Shown here piece by piece: positions 7,273-48,833 of a stretch of DNA of 64,000 nucleotides (the first letter of the stretch is position 1; each line of letters starts with the position of its first letter). This DNA is from Bradyrhizobium sp. Ash2021 (lineage in GTDB: Bacteria > Pseudomonadota > Alphaproteobacteria > Rhizobiales > Xanthobacteraceae), in the NCBI RefSeq assembly GCF_031202265.1, contig NZ_CP100604.1, forward strand, positions 124,001-188,000, given 5' to 3'. Both the position numbers and the translations under genes were made by a program. The notes beneath the pieces were generated by a model. The model saw nothing but the letters and a program-made list of their open reading frames with translations, was not told the DNA's origin and did not search any database.

Positions 7273-7359
<87 letters not shown>

Positions 7360-41008: not shown

Positions 41009-41761
41009 ATGTTGGACGCCGCCGTCAAGGCGCTATCGCAAATCCTGTCGCCGCCGATGCGCACCATTCTGTGGCGCTCGATCGGGCTGGCGCTGGTGCT
41101 GGTCACGGTGCTGGCGGTCGGATTGCAGCGGTTGTTGAGCTGGCTTGCGGAGAATGGCGAAACCTGGGCCGAGGCCATGCTGGGCCCCGGCTTCCACGCA
41201 ACACTCAATGTCCTCGCCTGGATCATCTCGATCGCCGCCGGCCTCGGTGTCGTGCTCGGCGGCATCTTCCTGATGCCCGCAATCACCTCGCTGGTCGCCA
41301 GCGTGTTCGTCGACGACGTCGCCGATCATGTCGAGCGCGAACATTATCCGGCGGAGCTTCCCGGCACCGCGCTGCCGCTCGGCGTCGCGATCCCGGAAGG
41401 CGCCAAGACCGCGCTGCTGACCATCCTGGTCTATCTGATCGCGCTGCCCTTCGTGTTCGTCGCGGGCGCCGGCTTCATCGCGTTTTTCATCGCGACCGCG
41501 TGGCTGTTGGGGCGTGAATATTTCGAGCTCGCGGCAATGCGGTTCCGCTCGCCGGCGGAAGCCAAGGCGATGCGCAAGGAAAACGCCGCCATCGTCTTCA
41601 CCGCAGGCCTGATCATCGCAGCCTTCGTATCGATCCCGATCGTCAATCTGGCGACGCCGTTGTTCGGCATGGCCTTCATGGTTCACATGCACAAGCGATT
41701 GAGCGGCCCGCGGCCGGAACTGATCGAGCAGGCGCGGCGGCGGGAAGTTTCCGCGCGTTGA
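41009..41761 (+). CDS. EI24/CysZ family membrane protein
   Basis: A 250-residue membrane protein with about four to five hydrophobic stretches and the EI24/CysZ pattern (GGIFLMPAITSLVASVFVDD, then FFIATAWLLGREYFELAAMR and FGMAFMVHMHKRL). CysZ of E. coli transports sulfate; most alphaproteobacterial EI24 proteins are uncharacterised. It follows the indolepyruvate oxidoreductase-type gene by 7 bases, suggesting co-transcription, but a functional link is not obvious. Confidence 0.85.
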   Translation: MLDAAVKALSQILSPPMRTILWRSIGLALVLVTVLAVGLQRLLSWLAENGETWAEAMLGPGFHATLNVLAWIISIAAGLGVVLGGIFLMPAITSLVASVFVDDVADHVEREHYPAELPGTALPLGVAIPEGAKTALLTILVYLIALPFVFVAGAGFIAFFIATAWLLGREYFELAAMRFRSPAEAKAMRKENAAIVFTAGLIIAAFVSIPIVNLATPLFGMAFMVHMHKRLSGPRPELIEQARRREVSAR

Positions 41762-41765
41762 TCTT

Positions 41766-41908
41766 GTCACCTCGCCCCGCTTGCGGGGAGAGGTCGGATC
41801 GCGAAGCGATCCGGGTGAGGGGGTACGGGTCTTTCAACTAGCACCGACCTCGCGGATAGAGCCCCTCACCCCAACCCTCTCCCCGCAAGAGCGGGGCGAG
41901 GGAGAAGC
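41766..41908. repeat. 150-bp palindromic element, copy 3 of 4
   Basis: It starts GTCACCTCGCCCCGCTTGCG and ends CCGCAAGAGCGGGGCGAGGG, in the same orientation as copy 1. It lies between convergent genes and could act as a terminator for both. Confidence 0.9.
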
Positions 41909-41935
41909 AGGCGACTCCATGCCAACCCGGACTCA

Positions 41936-43567
41936 TCAAACAGCCACGCCGCACTTCCGCAGCACACCCTTGGCAAAACCGAACGGCGCCGGCGTGAATG
42001 GACCCGGCGGCGCCCGGGTGATCAACGCCGTGAGCAACAGCGCGACCATCGCCAGCCAGAAACACAGCCAGAAGCCGTCGATATAGGCCAGCGTATTCGC
42101 CTCGCGTGCCACCTGGGCCGAAAGCGTTCCCATCGCCCGTGCCGGCGCTGTTCCGGCGCCGTGGCTGGCAAAGAAATCCGAGAGCTGCTTGAGCATGCGG
42201 GTCACATCGACGCTGCCGTTTTCAATGTGCTGTCCGAGATAATTGGAGTGGATCTGCTCGCGCACGCGCAGCCAGGTTCCCATCAGCGCCACGCCGATCT
42301 CGGCCCCGCCGAGCCGCATGATCTGGATATAGGCGGCAAACGACGTCGCGCGCGCCGGATCGGAATTGGACACAGCGAGGATGATGATCGGCAGCAAGGT
42401 GAACGCCTGTCCGATCGAGAGCAAAACGACGATGGTGACGAAATCGCCGCGCGCCCAGTCGTGGCTGAGTTGCGTGCCCAGCAAATTGGCCGTGGCGAAA
42501 GCCGAGAGCCCGACTACGAGCACGGTGCGGGGATCGAAATGCCGCAGCAGAAAGATCGATACCGGCACCAGCACGAACATCGGCAGCGCGCCGTATGTCA
42601 GCAACAACACGCCGGTCTGTTCGGGCCTGAGCTGACCGACCACGCTGAGAAAATTCGGCACCAGCGATGAATTGGACAGGCTGGTGAGGGTGTAGAGCAG
42701 GATGATGACCAGCGAGAGCCCGACATTGCGCGAGAACAGCACGTTGACGTGGGCCCAGGGCTCGGGAACCAACGCCTCGTTGATCAGGAACAGGACAAAC
42801 AGCACGCCGCCGCCGAGCAGCAGCGCCATGACCGTGCCGGATTCCAGCCAGTCCAGCCGATTGCCCTGATCGAGACCGGCATAGATCATCGAGACCGAGG
42901 TGCCGAGCAGCAGCATGCCGCCCCAGTCGGCATCGCGCAGCAGATTGCGGTTGACCGGTTCGGCCGGCGTACCGAGATAGACCATCAAGCCCATCAGCGG
43001 CGCGATCGCCACGCCCTGCCAGTACAGCCACTCCCAGCCCCAATGGTCGACGTAAAAGCCGACCAGCGAGGTGCCGCTGTCGAGCGCGAAGCCGACCCGG
43101 ATGGAATAGATCGAGATCGCCGGCAGCCACCACCGGATCGGCAAATTGCGGAACACGATCATCAACGTCGCGGGCACGAACGTCCCCAGCAACATGCCGT
43201 GCACGATGCTGAGCACGATCAGCGTGGTGTAGTCGTGGACGAACGGGATTGTCAGCGAGACCAGGGCATAGGCAAGGCTTGGAATGCCAAGCACGCGGCG
43301 CAGGCCGAATACGGTGGCGAGCCAGGCAACGGCCGGCGCGATGAAGATCTGCGAACCGATCGATGCGGTGCTGAGCCAGGCGCCCTCGTCGAACCCCAAC
43401 GAAAAGGCGCCGCGCAGATCCGGCAATCCGACCGATGTCAGCCGGCTGTCGAAATTGGCCAGAAAAGAGCCGAGCAGCACGGCGGCGACCGCGAACAGCG
43501 GGTGGCGCGCGACGCCACCGCGCGAGACCGGCCCGAGCGCCTGGTCGGCTGCGATCGTGTCAGTCAT
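41936..43567 (-). CDS. DHA2-family drug efflux permease (EmrB type)
   Basis: A 543-residue, 14-helix MFS permease. LPDLRGAFSLGFDEGAWLST followed by ASIGSQIFIAPAVAWL is typical of the DHA2/EmrB start, and the C-terminal DGFWLCFWLAMVALL ends the last helix. EmrB pumps hydrophobic compounds outward using protons, together with an HlyD-type adaptor. Here the adaptor gene is directly upstream and overlaps by 8 bases. The ending APFGFAKGVLRKCGVAV is cytoplasmic. Confidence 0.9.
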   Translation of the reverse strand: MTDTIAADQALGPVSRGGVARHPLFAVAAVLLGSFLANFDSRLTSVGLPDLRGAFSLGFDEGAWLSTASIGSQIFIAPAVAWLATVFGLRRVLGIPSLAYALVSLTIPFVHDYTTLIVLSIVHGMLLGTFVPATLMIVFRNLPIRWWLPAISIYSIRVGFALDSGTSLVGFYVDHWGWEWLYWQGVAIAPLMGLMVYLGTPAEPVNRNLLRDADWGGMLLLGTSVSMIYAGLDQGNRLDWLESGTVMALLLGGGVLFVLFLINEALVPEPWAHVNVLFSRNVGLSLVIILLYTLTSLSNSSLVPNFLSVVGQLRPEQTGVLLLTYGALPMFVLVPVSIFLLRHFDPRTVLVVGLSAFATANLLGTQLSHDWARGDFVTIVVLLSIGQAFTLLPIIILAVSNSDPARATSFAAYIQIMRLGGAEIGVALMGTWLRVREQIHSNYLGQHIENGSVDVTRMLKQLSDFFASHGAGTAPARAMGTLSAQVAREANTLAYIDGFWLCFWLAMVALLLTALITRAPPGPFTPAPFGFAKGVLRKCGVAV

Positions 43568-44720
43568 CGGTCTGAATGTTGGTCACGACCGACATTCCCG
43601 GCAGCAGGCGCTCCAGCAACGGCTGGTTCTTGTCGAGTTCGATCCGGACCGGAACGCGCTGGACCACCTTGGTGAAATTGCCGGTGGCGTTATCGGGCGG
43701 CAGCAGCGCGAATTGCGAGCCGCTGGCGGGCGAGACCCGCTCGACGCGGCCATGCAGCTTCTCGTTCGGAAAACTGTCGACCGTGATGTCGACGGGTTGG
43801 CCGGGCTTGACCCGCGTGAGCTGGGTTTCCTTATAGTTGGCCATCACATAGACATTGGGCAGCGGCACGACATTGATGAGGTTGCTGCCGATATTGACGT
43901 AATCGCCCGGCTGGACCTGGCGCTCGCCGACGACGCCGTCGAACGGCGCGACGATTTTGGTATAGCCGAGCTTGAGCCGCGCCGAGGCAAGGGCGGCCTG
44001 CGCGCCCAGCACGTCGGCGGCGCGCTGCTTCTTGGTTCCGGCCAGCACTTCCATCTGGTGACGCTGCGCGGCGATCACGGCCCGGCTGGCGCGAACATCG
44101 GCCTGCGCCTTGGCGTAGGCCGCGGTCGCCTGTTCGAATTTTTGCCTTGTGCCGGATTCGGTCTGCGACAGCGATTGCTGGCGCTCCTGTTCCTGCTTTG
44201 CCTCGACCTCTTGCGCGGCCGCCGATACAAGCTGGGCTTCGGCCTGCGCGATGGTCGCGTATTGCAGTTCGACCTGGTTGCTCAAATTGTCGAGCGCTGC
44301 TTGCGCCGCCGCGACGCTGGCCTCGGCCTGGGCGACCTGGGCCTGGTAGTCGGCGGGATCGATCTGAATCAGCAAATCGCCGGCCTTGACGCGCTGGAAA
44401 TCGTTGGCGGCAACGGTGAGGATTTCGCCGGCGACCCGGCTGCTCAGCCGGGTCATCTCGGCGCGGACATAGGCGTCATTCGTGGTCTGCACCGTGGCAT
44501 TACCGACCCATGCATCCCAGCGCAGCGTCGCCAGCGCGATGAAGCCGAATGCGGCCAGCACCGCGAACAGCGGAATCGCGAAACGGCCCCAGGAATTGCG
44601 CAAGGCAGCCGGCGGCGGCGAGGCCGGAGGAGCAGCCGGCGGAGGCGGCGCCGCAGCTATCTTCATTGCGGGCGGCGGGCTGGTTTGTTCCTGCTGACTC
44701 AAGGCAATCCCCTCACTCAT
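43560..44720 (-). CDS. HlyD-family efflux adaptor (EmrA type)
   Basis: A 386-residue membrane-fusion protein. A Pro/Ala-rich cytoplasmic N-terminus (about 1-45) and one transmembrane helix (about 50-68) come first. The lipoyl halves follow (TNDAYVRAEMTRLSSRVAGE and IVAPFDGVVGERQVQPGDYV), flanking a long alpha-helical coiled coil (about 120-225), and a beta-barrel region ends the protein. It bridges EmrB to an outer-membrane channel. The start ATG 44720 lies just beyond a remnant of nth, so its promoter must be in the 112-bp gap or further upstream. Confidence 0.9.
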   Translation of the reverse strand: MSEGIALSQQEQTSPPPAMKIAAAPPPPAAPPASPPPAALRNSWGRFAIPLFAVLAAFGFIALATLRWDAWVGNATVQTTNDAYVRAEMTRLSSRVAGEILTVAANDFQRVKAGDLLIQIDPADYQAQVAQAEASVAAAQAALDNLSNQVELQYATIAQAEAQLVSAAAQEVEAKQEQERQQSLSQTESGTRQKFEQATAAYAKAQADVRASRAVIAAQRHQMEVLAGTKKQRAADVLGAQAALASARLKLGYTKIVAPFDGVVGERQVQPGDYVNIGSNLINVVPLPNVYVMANYKETQLTRVKPGQPVDITVDSFPNEKLHGRVERVSPASGSQFALLPPDNATGNFTKVVQRVPVRIELDKNQPLLERLLPGMSVVTNIQTDD

Positions 44721-44767
44721 TCTGCCGAATGCCGGACGAGGCTATCAAGGCATGATGCATGCCGCAA

Positions 44768-44829
44768 ACCGTCGTGTGAGGCCACTGGCAGAGATCGTCG
44801 ATCAGGCATACCGCGCGGCTGGTGCCGCG
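44768..44829 (-). pseudogene. Remnant of the 3' end of an nth-like gene
   Basis: Bases 44768-44810 match 48070-48112, the 3' end of nth, at 36 of 43 positions, including 24 of 25 over GGCAGAGATCGTCGATCAGG CATA (one difference). On the minus strand the remnant reads CLIDDLCQWPHTTV against CLINDLCRWPEKTV in nth. A weaker match (AGCCGCGC) extends to about 44829 with a small gap. There is no stop where nth ends. It separates the DHA2 exporter gene from the HlyD gene. Confidence 0.75.
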
Positions 44830-44832
44830 AGG

Positions 44833-46371
44833 TCAATCCGACCGGTTCCGCGCCAATGGCACCAACAGCAGTCCGGCGATCGCGACGCAGGCGAGCATCG
44901 CCCAGGCCTCGTTGATGCACAATGCGAGCGAGGCCTTTTCGACCATCGGCCGGACGAATGCCACGGCAGCATCGTCCGGCGGTCCCGGCGGCCGGTTCAC
45001 AAACGCGGCTACGCTTAGCCCGATCGCCTTCGCGGCCGTAACATCTCCCGCCAGCAGGCGGGTGCGAAAATCCTCGGCGTAAATTCCGATCCGGCCGTAC
45101 AGGATGGTATCGATCAGAGCGATGCCGATGGCGCCGCCCAAATTCCGCATCAGGTTGAACAGGCCGCTGGCGTCCGCCACCTCCGCTTCCGGGAGCGCAC
45201 CGAGCGCAATGCGGGTCGGCGGCAATAGGCAGAACATGATCGCGATGCCGCGCACCACCTGCGGTAAAAACATTTCGTCGAAATCGGCGGTGCGGGGCTG
45301 AAACGCGCTCAGGCCCAGTCCCAGCGCGAACAGAGCGAAGCCACAAGCCGTCAGCAGGCGGGCGCCGATCCGGCTTTCGAGGATCGCGGCGAGCGGCGCG
45401 GTGACGAGTTGCGCGACCCCGGTGACGAGCATGATGGTGCCGATCTCGAACGCATCACGGCCGCGCACGAAGGCGAGAAAGACCGGCATCAGATAGACCG
45501 AACCGAACAGGCCGACCCCAAGGCAAAAGCTCAAGGCGCAGCCGGCCGCGAACGAGCGCCGCTTCAAGGTCAGGAGTTGCACGACCGGATGCGCCGATCG
45601 CAAGCTGCGGCGGACCGAAAGGGCGATACCGAAGGCGCTTGCCGACAACAGGCCGATGCATGTCAGCGACCACCAGCCACGGTGCGGCGCTTCCTTCAGC
45701 CCGATCTCGAGGCTGGCAAGCGCCGCCGCCAGCAGGATCAGCGTTAACCCGTCCAGTCTTGTCAGTTCGTTCAGATCGGTTTGCTGACGCGGCAGCAGCA
45801 ACGGTGCCGCCGAGGCTGCGATCATTCCGGGAATGACGTTGATCAGAAACAGCCACGGCCACGACCAGGTTTCCGTGATCCAGCCACCGACGACGGGTCC
45901 AACGGTCGGCGCCAGCACCGCGACCACGCCGCCGACCGTAGTGGCGACGGCGTGAAGCCGGGGCGGGAACAGCAGGAACACCGCTGAAAACACCGCGGGG
46001 ATCAACACACCGCCGGAAAATCCCTGCACCACCCGGAACACCAGCAGCACGGCAAAATGGCCGCTATAGGCGCAACCGATCGACGCCAGGGTAAACAACG
46101 AGACGGCTGTTACGAACAGCCACCGCAAGGTCAGCACGCGCGTGAACAGGCCGGTCAAGGGGATCGCGATCACCTCGGCGATCAGATAGGCGGTCTGGAT
46201 CCAGCTCATGGCGTCCGGCGAGATCGCCAGCGCATGCTGGATCGCCGGCAATGAGGTCGCGACCACCTGGATGTCGAGGATGGCCATGAACATGCCAAGG
46301 CACATCAACAGGAAGCCGGCCCATGTCGCCACGGCCGGCGCGACCGTTCGAGGCTCCGCCTGCTCACTCAC
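44833..46371 (-). CDS. DHA2-family MFS exporter in the polyketide cassette
   Basis: A 512-residue, 14-helix MFS transporter. LLMCLGMFMAILDIQVVATS (helix 1), the AYLIAEVIAIPLTGLFTRVL motif A region, and WPWLFLINVIPGMIAA are DHA2 features. The start is a GTG at 46371 overlapping the stop of the methyltransferase gene (GTGA), hence translationally coupled. A longer frame upstream is only an overlap with the methyltransferase gene. It has no adaptor of its own in the cassette; whether it exports the polyketide product is inference from the coupling. Confidence 0.88.
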   Translation of the reverse strand: MSEQAEPRTVAPAVATWAGFLLMCLGMFMAILDIQVVATSLPAIQHALAISPDAMSWIQTAYLIAEVIAIPLTGLFTRVLTLRWLFVTAVSLFTLASIGCAYSGHFAVLLVFRVVQGFSGGVLIPAVFSAVFLLFPPRLHAVATTVGGVVAVLAPTVGPVVGGWITETWSWPWLFLINVIPGMIAASAAPLLLPRQQTDLNELTRLDGLTLILLAAALASLEIGLKEAPHRGWWSLTCIGLLSASAFGIALSVRRSLRSAHPVVQLLTLKRRSFAAGCALSFCLGVGLFGSVYLMPVFLAFVRGRDAFEIGTIMLVTGVAQLVTAPLAAILESRIGARLLTACGFALFALGLGLSAFQPRTADFDEMFLPQVVRGIAIMFCLLPPTRIALGALPEAEVADASGLFNLMRNLGGAIGIALIDTILYGRIGIYAEDFRTRLLAGDVTAAKAIGLSVAAFVNRPPGPPDDAAVAFVRPMVEKASLALCINEAWAMLACVAIAGLLLVPLARNRSD

Positions 46372-46883
46372 AGCGCCCTGCGTGCGCGTTGACCGTCGAC
46401 GGCGGATAGCGCGCGGGCCTCGACGCGAATCCGGATCACGAGCACCGCGGCGTTCAAGGCCGTGAAGATCAGCGCCAGCAGAGGCAGATGCAGCGCGAGC
46501 GGCAGCAACGCGATCTCGGCGGCGACGACGGCATAATTGGGGTGCGAAAAATATTGGTAGGGTCCGGATGCGACCAGCTGCTCGCCCGGCAGCACGATGA
46601 CGCGCGTGGTCCATCGCGGCCCGAGCGTTGCGAGAATCCATAGGCGAAAGCCCTGCAGCGCGACGAACAGCGCAAGCGCCAGCCGATTCACGTCCTGATC
46701 GCGGCCCCAGACCCACAGCGCGATCAGCCAGGCTGCATGGACCGCCACAACCAGCGGATAGTGATTGGCGCCGATCTCGATGGCGCCGCGCGCCTTGAGC
46801 CTGCCGGTGTTGTATCGCGACAAGACGAGCTCGCCGATCCGCTGCAGCGTGACCAGCGCAAGAATGACGGCCGCGAGGCTCAC
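46368..46883 (-). CDS. Isoprenylcysteine carboxyl methyltransferase-like enzyme
   Basis: A 171-residue, mostly hydrophobic protein with about four membrane helices. The ICMT signature region SGPYQYFSHPNYAVVAAEIA (about 105-124) holds the His-Pro-Asn and Tyr residues that bind SAM, and IRIRVEARAL ends the domain (Arg/Glu). In Streptomyces srsB and Bacillus bpsB, enzymes of this family methylate polyketide phenolic lipids made by the adjacent type III synthase. The gene overlaps the synthase stop by 4 bases, the same pairing, so O-methylation of the synthase product is the best guess. Confidence 0.85.
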   Translation of the reverse strand: MSLAAVILALVTLQRIGELVLSRYNTGRLKARGAIEIGANHYPLVVAVHAAWLIALWVWGRDQDVNRLALALFVALQGFRLWILATLGPRWTTRVIVLPGEQLVASGPYQYFSHPNYAVVAAEIALLPLALHLPLLALIFTALNAAVLVIRIRVEARALSAVDGQRARRAL

Positions 46884-47941
46884 GCCGCGTGCCGCAACGC
46901 GACGCAGCTTGCGGTGAAGCCGGGCCCAAGCGCGGTCAGCAGCGACCGCGACGGCAGGCCGTGGGCGCGCGCGCGTTCGAGCACGAACAGCACGGTGGGC
47001 GACGACATGTTGCCATAGTCGGCGATAACTTCGCGCTCATGGTCGAGCGTGCCCTGCTCGAGCGACAGCGCCCGTTCAAGCGCGAGAATGACCTTGGTGC
47101 CACCGGGATGACAAACGAAGCGATCGATATCGTTTGCCGACAACTCCATACGGGACAGAATTTCCGCGACGGCCGGCCCGATATTATCCCGGACGAAATC
47201 GGGAATCGTGCGCTGAAAGATTACGCCGAACCCCTCCGGGTCGACGCTCCATCCCATGATGTCGAGCGTATCGGGCCACTGCTTTTCGCCGGCGGCCTCG
47301 ATCCGGGTCGCGCCGCCATCGCCGGCGCGCAGAATGGCGGCGGCTGCGCCATCGCCGAACAGGCTGGCAGCAACGACGTTGGCCTTGGTCAATTCATCAT
47401 GGCGCACCGCAAGGGTGCAGAGTTCGAGCGCGACCAACAGCACGTTGGTGCCTGGCCGCGCCTGCGCCAGCCTTGAAGCGATCGACAGGCCGGAGACGCC
47501 GCCGGCGCATCCGAGACCGAATACCGGCACGCGCGACACGTCGCTGCGGAAACCAAGTTGGCCCGCAACCCGCGCTTCCAGCGTCGGCGTTGCAATGCCG
47601 GTCGAACATACCGTGACGACAGTGTCGATATCGCCGGCCGAAAGATCCGCACGCGCCAGCGCCTTGCGCGCGACGTCGACGAACAGCGCCTCCGCGCCTT
47701 CGAGAAACGCCCGCGTTCGCTCCGGCCAGCCGCGCCGCTCGAGATACCATTCCATCGGTTTGACGCCGTAGCGATGGCGTATTCCGGTGTTGGCAAACAG
47801 GCTCGACATGGTTTCGAACTGCGGATAGCGGTCCGCCATCAGCTTGCTGGCTGCTTCCAGGATTTGTTTCTGATGAAACAGATGCGGGGGAACCGAGGTC
47901 GCAAGCGAAACCAGTGCGGCCTTGTCATTCATGTCACTCAT
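46880..47941 (-). CDS. Type III polyketide synthase (alkylresorcinol/alkylpyrone type)
   Basis: A 353-residue chalcone/stilbene-synthase fold protein. The catalytic triad is complete: Cys145 (FGLGCAGG), His278 (FVCHPGGTK) and Asn311 (YGNMSSPT). The GxGCAGG loop and TGIATPTLEARV segment fit the bacterial phenolic-lipid and alkylpyrone synthases more than plant-like ones. It condenses an acyl starter with malonyl-CoA. It is first in a coupled trio with an ICMT-like methyltransferase and a DHA2 exporter. A TATAAT hexamer (47959-47964, minus strand) lies 18 bases upstream. The start is ATG 47941 or, with better ribosome-binding-site spacing, ATG 47932. Confidence 0.9.
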   Translation of the reverse strand: MSDMNDKAALVSLATSVPPHLFHQKQILEAASKLMADRYPQFETMSSLFANTGIRHRYGVKPMEWYLERRGWPERTRAFLEGAEALFVDVARKALARADLSAGDIDTVVTVCSTGIATPTLEARVAGQLGFRSDVSRVPVFGLGCAGGVSGLSIASRLAQARPGTNVLLVALELCTLAVRHDELTKANVVAASLFGDGAAAAILRAGDGGATRIEAAGEKQWPDTLDIMGWSVDPEGFGVIFQRTIPDFVRDNIGPAVAEILSRMELSANDIDRFVCHPGGTKVILALERALSLEQGTLDHEREVIADYGNMSSPTVLFVLERARAHGLPSRSLLTALGPGFTASCVALRHAA

Positions 47942-48065
47942 CCTGCCTCTGGTACCTCATTATAGGAACCGCGGCGAGGAGCGAATATTTCAGAGGCCGC
48001 CGATGCCGGGCGCGCCGGGGCATCACTATAAATTGAAAGACGGAGGGAAGGCGCTCGCGAAAAAG

Positions 48066-48833
48066 CTACACCGTCTTTTCCGGCCAGCGGCAGAGATCGT
48101 TGATCAGGCATAACTCGCAGCGCGGCTTGCGGGCCAGACAGGTGTAGCGGCCGTGCAGGATCAGCCAGTGATGCGCATGCAACATGAACTCGGACGGGAT
48201 CACTTTCTCCAGCCCAAGCTCGACCTCGAGCGGCGTATTGCCCGGCGCCAAACCGGTGCGATTGCCGACGCGGAACACATGGGTATCGACCGCCATGGTG
48301 TGTTCGCCATAGGCCATGTTGAGCACGACATTGGCGGTCTTGCGCCCGGCGCCGGGTAGGCTTTCGATCTCGGCGCGGCTGCGCGGCACCTCGCCGCCGA
48401 ATTCGGCAATCAGTTTTTCCGACAGCGCGATGACGTTCCTGGCCTTGTTGCGGTAGAGCCCGATGGTCTTGATGTAGTCGCGGACCTGGTCTTCCCCGAG
48501 CGCGAGCATTTTTTGCGGTGTGTCGGCGACTTGAAACAGCGCGCGCGTCGCTTTGTTGACGCCGGCGTCAGTCGCCTGCGCCGACAGCACCACGGCGACC
48601 AGCAGCGTGTAGGGGTTGAGGTGCTCGAGCTCGCCCTTCGGCTCGGGATTAGCCTCGCGAAAACGGCTGAAGGCCTCGTGGACCTCCGCCGCAGTCCAGG
48701 GCCTTGGCTTTGGCGATTTTTTGGGCGCTGTGGATTTGGGCGACGATCCCGCCGCCGCCTTTTTCGCCGGCTTCCTCGGTGCGGAGCGAACGATGGTTTT
48801 TTTGGCGCGTTGAGCGCGGATGATTTTGGCCAT
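48066..48833 (-). CDS. nth: Endonuclease III with basic N-terminal extension
   Basis: A 255-residue DNA glycosylase/AP lyase that removes oxidised pyrimidines. The helix-hairpin-helix LPGAGRKTANVVL carries the catalytic Lys165, and VDTHV carries Asp183. The iron-sulfur loop is Cys232-x6-Cys239-x2-Cys242-x5-Cys248, exactly the family spacing. About 45 Lys/Ala/Pro-rich residues precede the domain, possibly for DNA contact. The start was taken at ATG 48833 (MAKIIRAQRAKK); a longer frame to 48971 overlaps the divergent DUF2244 gene. A diverged copy of its 3' end occurs at 44768. Confidence 0.95.
   Translation of the reverse strand: MAKIIRAQRAKKTIVRSAPRKPAKKAAAGSSPKSTAPKKSPKPRPWTAAEVHEAFSRFREANPEPKGELEHLNPYTLLVAVVLSAQATDAGVNKATRALFQVADTPQKMLALGEDQVRDYIKTIGLYRNKARNVIALSEKLIAEFGGEVPRSRAEIESLPGAGRKTANVVLNMAYGEHTMAVDTHVFRVGNRTGLAPGNTPLEVELGLEKVIPSEFMLHAHHWLILHGRYTCLARKPRCELCLINDLCRWPEKTV

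What the first reader, a model, noticed from the sequence alone, without database searches (positions are those of the whole stretch)
44768..48112. A polyketide synthase cassette bounded by the nth gene and a decayed copy of its 3' end
Bases 44768-44810 match the last codons of nth (48070-48112) at 36 of 43 positions, in the same orientation. Translated, the remnant reads CLIDDLCQWPHTTV against CLINDLCRWPEKTV. Between the two copies lie exactly three coupled genes: type III polyketide synthase, ICMT-like methyltransferase and DHA2 exporter. The HlyD/EmrB pair lies outside. A direct repeat of the 3' end of a host gene around a cargo is what an insertion at nth, or replacement by recombination with a foreign nth 3' end, would leave. 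The differences look like normal codon divergence, so the two ends probably come from different lineages.
Basis: partly seen in the sequence, partly recalled or inferred. Interest (0 to 1): 0.75.

Follow-up and report, generated by a model that had tools for sequence, protein, structure and literature searches.

The report
Recombination scar with stray nth tail
In two Bradyrhizobium genomes a decayed copy of the end of a DNA-repair gene sits between two neighbouring gene sets, a scar which suggests that recombination stitched the sets together at a place where related strains carry different genes; the kind of event is known, the record of it is unusually readable.

Summary
44765-44832 (- strand) is a decayed copy of about the last 23 codons of nth: 36/43 ungapped, next best in the window 25/43. 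It starts at the DHA2 stop and has lost its own stop. Among the sequences searched it recurs only in B. erythrophlei GAS478, with two bases fewer. The nth-cysZ interval varies in the genus: of 80 fetched loci 32 lack both gene sets, 23 have pair plus trio, 17 pair only, 7 trio only, 1 the window's order. Loci with the pair but no trio have nth directly before HlyD, and remnant plus leader align to that junction, so the remnant belongs with HlyD-EmrB. The five nth ends nearest to it are pair-only loci, though HlyD-adjacent loci as a whole are not nearer (p 0.13). Which set came in is open. The trio is ordinary in composition and codon use and its tree fits the flanking genes (p 0.42), so I lean to the pair as newcomer. 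No tyrosine-integrase match lies within 60 kb. An ordinary kind of event with a clear scar.

The parts
48066..48833 (-). nth, endonuclease III, intact; stop codon TAG
   Evidence: Pfam HhH-GPD, HHH and EndIII_4Fe-2S; 195 of 195 genus genomes match at E<=0.001, three incomplete ones (G100, G101, G164) only weakly
47942..48065 (-). nth-PKS spacer with an element TTCAAYTTATAGTGA ... GAAATATT that lies before PKS in most spacers listed
   Evidence: spacers, read by eye; L039, L113 and L114 lack it or part of it
46880..47941 (-). type III polyketide synthase
   Evidence: Pfam Chal_sti_synt_N/C; best solved relatives 1u0m and Pks11 4jao
46368..46883 (-). ICMT-like methyltransferase
   Evidence: Pfam ICMT 4.7e-25
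44833..46371 (-).
   Evidence: Pfam MFS_1; in the relatives listed the frame runs one or more codons past the end of the tblastn match
44765..44832 (-). decayed copy of about the last 23 codons of nth, without stop codon
44703..44764 (-). leader between remnant and hlyD, collinear with the nth-hlyD leader of other genomes
   Evidence: alignments, e.g. L098, L041, L042, L043, L059
43560..44702 (-). hlyD-type adaptor; start probably TTG 44702 (ORF listing gives ATG 44720)
   Evidence: Pfam HlyD_3, HlyD_D23; TTG or GTG plus AGTCA at this place in the alignments shown; position
41936..43567 (-). emrB-type MFS exporter, partner of hlyD
   Evidence: Pfam MFS_1
41009..41761 (+). cysZ/EI24 gene, convergent, the other border of the variable interval
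   Evidence: Pfam EI24; found after the interval in 76 of 80 fetched loci; not seen in three cut pieces (L039, L042, L071) nor in L043, which has 2.9 kb after the trio

Best explanation
The 68-bp remnant is the scar of a recombination that joined two versions of the nth-cysZ interval. One carried nth-PKS-ICMT-DHA2-cysZ, the other nth-HlyD-EmrB-cysZ. The joint fuses the very end of DHA2 to the last ~68 bp of the second version's nth, so that HlyD-EmrB kept the tail of the nth it used to follow. Pairing of a shared flank (nth on one side or cysZ on the other) would have given one homologous crossover; the DHA2/nth' joint is the non-homologous end, as in homology-facilitated illegitimate recombination. 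I lean (about 3 to 2) to HlyD-EmrB with a foreign nth tail being the newcomer behind a resident trio, rather than the trio being inserted at nth. It happened before the window's strain and B. erythrophlei GAS478 parted and after their line left the other genomes sampled; the tail has no evident use and decays. Shown: the remnant, its collinearity with nth-HlyD junctions, both source arrangements in relatives, the narrow spread. Inferred: one-sided homology, different donors, direction, transfer route. The confidence given is for the joining event whichever set came in.
For: Remnant well above chance. The leader after it aligns on with nth-HlyD junctions of other genomes (L041 75% over 440 bp, L098 73% over 445 bp). 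Both parental arrangements exist: 7 loci trio only (one cut), 17 pair only (two cut), of 80. The five nth ends nearest to the remnant are pair-only. Pair and trio trees differ: the pair joins window+GAS478 with L098 (98/97) and then with L041/L043/L072/L042 (100/99), while the trio rejects window+GAS478+L041+L043+L072 (p-AU 0.027 and 0.012). Flanking genes reject window+GAS478+L098 (p 9.5e-5), so the pair has moved between lineages here. Trio position fits the flanking genes (p 0.42; mean residual +0.7 at sd 1.8). Of 265 genus genomes only the window's own and G204 (by position probably GAS478) match the 271-bp junction throughout; two candidates per genome were scored.
Against: Direction is not fixed: without L098 the pair no longer rejects the backbone position (p 0.114), and L098 may be the recipient. 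L098, nearest by pair, has the lowest ungapped nth-end match to the remnant (36/52). HlyD-adjacent loci taken together are not nearer to the remnant than the rest (p 0.13), and the intact nth end is set apart from HlyD-adjacent loci (p 3e-5) mainly by the pair-plus-trio loci; against pair-only loci p is 0.086. The backbone does not reject window+GAS478+L041+L043+L072 (p 0.18). The trio rejections are weak, among 11 AU tests on groups chosen after trees were seen. No tract of raised identity in nth or cysZ marks a crossover. Donor unknown, so microhomology at the joint cannot be tested.
Confidence: 0.62

Rival explanations
1. First reader's version, one of the two directions of the joining event above: the trio came in with a donor nth 3' end by recombination in nth; the remnant is the recipient's own old nth end beside its resident HlyD-EmrB.
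For: Fits the anatomy as well as the mirror version; pair-only loci exist (17 of 80); the pair, with L098 left out, does not reject the backbone position (p 0.114).
Against: Trio GC, codon use and tree position are those of the neighbourhood; the intact nth shows no clear switch of affinity along its length.
Confidence: 0.25
2. No transfer: tandem duplication of the run from the nth tail to DHA2 in an ancestor with nth-HlyD-EmrB-PKS-ICMT-DHA2-cysZ, then loss of the first HlyD-EmrB and of the second trio.
For: That ancestral order is the commonest full form (23 of 80) and the DHA2/nth' joint is what such a duplication makes; L143 shows a HlyD match over 25% of its length and no EmrB match. The evidence that the two nth ends come from different lineages is only moderate.
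Against: Needs three events; in GAS478 only about 25 bp separate the EmrB and cysZ matches, with no PKS leader; pair and trio trees differ.
Confidence: 0.18
3. Site-specific integration of an element into the 3' end of nth, the two nth ends being attL and attR.
For: A direct repeat of a gene 3' end around cargo is the usual look of such islands (recalled).
Against: The nearest Phage_integrase (PF00589) match is at C1:236331, about 64 kb away and weak (serine recombinases were not searched); 23 of 80 loci hold the same genes in another order without a repeat.
Confidence: 0.04
4. Chance likeness or an unrelated coding remnant.
For: Only 43-68 bp, with indels at one end.
Against: Scores far above shuffles and random pieces and above the reverse-strand control (54 against 36); the leader is collinear too.
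Confidence: 0.01

Closest known systems
Homology-facilitated illegitimate recombination (PMC3240628, abstract and outline seen; described there for three competent species and at low rate in E. coli conjugation)
   Same: One homologous end and one non-homologous end, foreign DNA added.
   Different: Here only an old scar is seen; the homologous end and the transfer were not observed.
Orphan immunity gene arrays of Vibrio cholerae type VI clusters (PMC5361080, passages seen)
   Same: Modules added behind a conserved part, leaving displaced downstream genes beside the newcomer; a mechanism of the same kind is proposed there.
   Different: There whole immunity genes are kept; here 68 bp of nth are left and decay.
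Integrase islands that rebuild the 3' end of a gene (recalled)
   Same: Direct repeat of a gene 3' end.
   Different: No tyrosine-integrase match near, same genes elsewhere in the genus without a repeat.

Membership tests
Homology-facilitated illegitimate recombination | homologous crossover at one end | tested here: inconclusive
   nth and cysZ flank 76 of 80 loci, but no tract of raised identity remains
Homology-facilitated illegitimate recombination | non-homologous joint at the other end | tested here: met
   DHA2 end fused to nth' within about 3 bases; an exporter gene and nth are unrelated
Homology-facilitated illegitimate recombination | short microhomology at the joint (recalled) | not testable with these tools
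   donor and recipient sequences of the time are unknown
Integrase-borne genomic island at a gene 3' end | integrase gene in or beside the element | tested here: not met
   nearest PF00589 match 64 kb away; no such domain in the eight proteins scanned; serine recombinases not searched
Integrase-borne genomic island at a gene 3' end | the same repeat around the cargo in relatives | tested here: not met
   no second nth end above the control downstream of nth in 80 fetched loci or in 23 named loci besides GAS478
Type III polyketide synthase (chalcone/stilbene synthase superfamily) | both chalcone/stilbene synthase domains over cut-off | tested here: met
   PF00195 73.4 bits, PF02797 61.8 bits
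Type III polyketide synthase (chalcone/stilbene synthase superfamily) | Cys-His-Asn catalytic triad | not tested
   stretches GLGCAGG, CHPGG and GNMSSPT are in the translation but were not aligned to a solved structure

The most novel reading that the evidence does not exclude
The nth-cysZ interval of Bradyrhizobium is a docking site without an integrase, in which whole export and polyketide modules are exchanged between lineages by recombination in the two conserved convergent border genes; now and then a module drags along the tail of its old neighbour, which dates and directs the exchange.
Probability: 0.5. Interest if true: 0.45.

Novelty: new member of a known kind. Interest (0 to 1): 0.35.

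Why it matters
It is a readable record of how gene modules may be swapped between soil bacteria without a mobile element: the decayed tail of a conserved gene tells which module travelled with which neighbour. The same interval shows five arrangements of these two gene sets among 80 loci of one genus, so it could serve to test how often such one-sided exchanges happen. It also warns against reading a duplicated gene end around a cluster as an integrase island.

Tried and rejected
Compositional sign of foreign origin of the trio: none clear in GC, GC3 or codon use within the window (PKS GC3 0.757 is lowest of the five genes for which GC3 was printed). A genome-wide codon comparison was planned but dropped.

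Identity along nth, cysZ, HlyD, EmrB, DHA2 and PKS to find crossover points: no clear switch; the event is probably too old.

Backbone from more flanking genes: in the 20 upstream pieces only ada and DUF2244 were found, ldcA and mpl only in the window and GAS478, so the backbone tree rests on ada, DUF2244, nth and cysZ and has weak inner forks.

AU tests, 11 in all, groups chosen after trees were seen: trio {window, GAS478, L041, L043, L072} 0.0265 and 0.0118 on fewer rows; pair {window, GAS478, L059} 0.0004; backbone {window, GAS478, L098} 9.5e-5, {window, GAS478, L041, L043, L072} 0.182, the same five with L098 2.2e-4; pair ingroup without window 0.0037, pair {L098, L059} 3e-5, trio ingroup without window 0.424, trio {window, GAS478, L112} 0.342; pair ingroup without window, L098 left out, 0.114. 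A FastTree of the trio put window and GAS478 with trio-only L095 and L112 at support 0.49 only; the IQ-TREE trio tree leaves them alone. Twelve named loci taken for genomes already sampled were left out of the trees; this was judged by likeness and contig length and not verified for each, and L122 may be a genome of its own. Rows under 55% filled were left out too.

The window-like order in L089 (by contig and position the same as L144, Tv2a-2) and L137 (ARR65): no nth remnant found between DHA2 and HlyD; they form their own clade in both trees, so that order probably arose apart.

Literature: five searches, judged from titles and starts of abstracts, listed no paper on this interval: 10 of 49 papers, 8 of 8 (27), 12 of 30 (38), 0 of 0 (39), 8 of 8 (48); three of them named Bradyrhizobium. 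Of two papers the abstract and outline or passages were seen.

Full report
What was claimed and what is there. The finding says that a decayed copy of the 3' end of nth lies at 44768-44810, 3.3 kb from nth itself, with a type III polyketide synthase (PKS), an ICMT-like methyltransferase and a DHA2 exporter between. The two stretches agree at 36 of 43 positions; the next best places in the window give 24 (same strand) and 25 (other strand). Local alignment of the 68-nt stretch with the nth end scores 54 against a highest of 35 in 2000 shuffles and 29 in 3000 random pieces. The stretch runs from the base after the DHA2 stop (44832) to 44765 on the - strand; 52 bp align firmly, the rest with small indels. 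The nth stop is lost (TGC). Pfam names the eight neighbouring proteins scanned as expected.

Where else it occurs. 80 nth loci were fetched out of 195 genus genomes: the 60 most like the window's nth in order, and 20 picked from further down with preference for PKS carriers. Scanned downstream of nth, none has a second nth end: best other score 34, reverse-strand control up to 36, window 54. Of 24 named loci with nth and PKS scanned in the same way only L119, B. erythrophlei GAS478, has it; there the 180-base stretch around it differs from the window by one base and a 2-bp gap inside the remnant. The other listed matches cover part of the query: the DHA2 side, or the remnant side with or without leader.

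The interval. Between the convergent genes nth and cysZ, the 80 loci show: neither pair nor trio in 32; HlyD-EmrB-PKS-ICMT-DHA2 in 23 (one, L043, shows no cysZ in its piece); HlyD-EmrB in 17 (two pieces cut by contig ends; one of these genomes, G035, has PKS on another contig); PKS-ICMT-DHA2 in 7 (one cut); PKS-ICMT-DHA2-HlyD-EmrB in 1 (L089). Seven of the 80 have more than 450 bp of other DNA before cysZ. ORFs were read in six of these seven and in four named loci; of four proteins scanned one is a beta-lactamase-fold protein, two are substrate-binding proteins and one an IS110 transposase. Sampling leans to nth-like and PKS-bearing genomes, so the counts are not frequencies.

What the remnant belongs to. 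In loci with nth beside HlyD, the nth end, leader and HlyD start align in one run to the window's remnant, leader and HlyD start (L041 75% over 440 bp, L098 73% over 445 bp). So the remnant is an nth end that HlyD once followed. By gapped score the five nearest nth ends are L110, L118, L068, L096 and L103, all pair-only; L117 and L071 (pair-only) tie with L051, L104 and L111 (empty) for the next places. Pair-only against loci without HlyD: p 0.016. Against the reading: pair-plus-trio loci are the least like the remnant, so HlyD-adjacent loci together are not nearer (p 0.13). The intact nth end is nearest to L070, L075 and L104 (empty); HlyD-adjacent loci are further from it (p 3e-5), but pair-only loci alone hardly (p 0.086). 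Kinship was not corrected for (all).

What came in. The pair of window and GAS478 is sister to that of L098 (98/97), then to L041/L043/L072/L042. The flanking genes ada, DUF2244, nth and cysZ reject window+GAS478+L098 (p-AU 9.5e-5). So the pair has moved between these lines here, though L098 may be the one that received it: without L098 the pair no longer disagrees with the backbone (p 0.114). The trio rejects a grouping with L041/L043/L072 (p 0.027 and 0.012), which the backbone itself does not reject (p 0.18), and it accepts the backbone position (p 0.42). Trio identities to other genomes are about what the flanks predict (mean residual +0.7, sd 1.8); L112, L133 and L095 (trio only) and L137 (window order) are closer than predicted. 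GC and codon use of the trio are like the neighbours'. I therefore lean to a resident nth-PKS-ICMT-DHA2-cysZ into which HlyD-EmrB came with 68 bp of foreign nth, but the mirror case is nearly as good.

Mechanism. The DHA2/nth' joint is a join of unrelated genes within about 3 bp; in the relatives listed the DHA2 frame goes on for one to many codons past the match, so the joint may have set the present DHA2 stop. The other end left no visible mark, as a homologous crossover in nth or cysZ would. This is the picture of homology-facilitated illegitimate recombination (PMC3240628, abstract and outline; PMC5361080, passages, where something akin is proposed for Vibrio type VI modules). The nearest tyrosine-integrase match is 64 kb away, and the only tRNA in the window is at 7273-7359.

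What the genes may do. The best solved relatives of the PKS are 1u0m (putative polyketide synthase) and Pks11, named for alpha-pyrone synthesis (4jao). PKS, ICMT and MFS exporter also stand together, with no nth match in the piece, in other Alphaproteobacteria such as L164, L166 and L178. A methylated, exported pyrone or phenolic lipid is the likely product by family knowledge (recalled); nothing here tests it.

Verdict. Observation confirmed, interpretation partly supported. A known kind of event with a well-kept scar.

Noticed in passing
41771-41930: About 150 bp of palindromic repeat (by eye) between emrB and cysZ, absent in GAS478, where about 25 bp separate the two matches; the last codons of EmrB differ with it.
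   Followed up: partly
47942-48065: An element TTCAAYTTATAGTGA followed by GAAATATT lies before PKS in most spacers listed, whether nth or EmrB is upstream (by eye); perhaps promoter or operator of the trio.
   Followed up: no
43560-44720: HlyD start is probably TTG 44702, not ATG 44720: TTG or GTG and the next codons are kept in the alignments shown.
   Followed up: partly
L097, L100, L115, L137, L143; L072; L069, L130, L155; L040: Other cargo in the nth-cysZ interval: substrate-binding protein genes, a beta-lactamase-fold gene, an IS110 transposase (the proteins of L155, L097, L040 and L072 were scanned, the others are named by likeness to these).
   Followed up: partly
L143 8128-8418: MAG locus with a HlyD match over only 25% of its length right after nth and no EmrB match, ahead of PKS: the pair seems to be on its way out, or the assembly is at fault.
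   Followed up: no
L089, L137: Same gene order as the window, no nth remnant found, in a separate clade: the order arose more than once or is old.
   Followed up: partly
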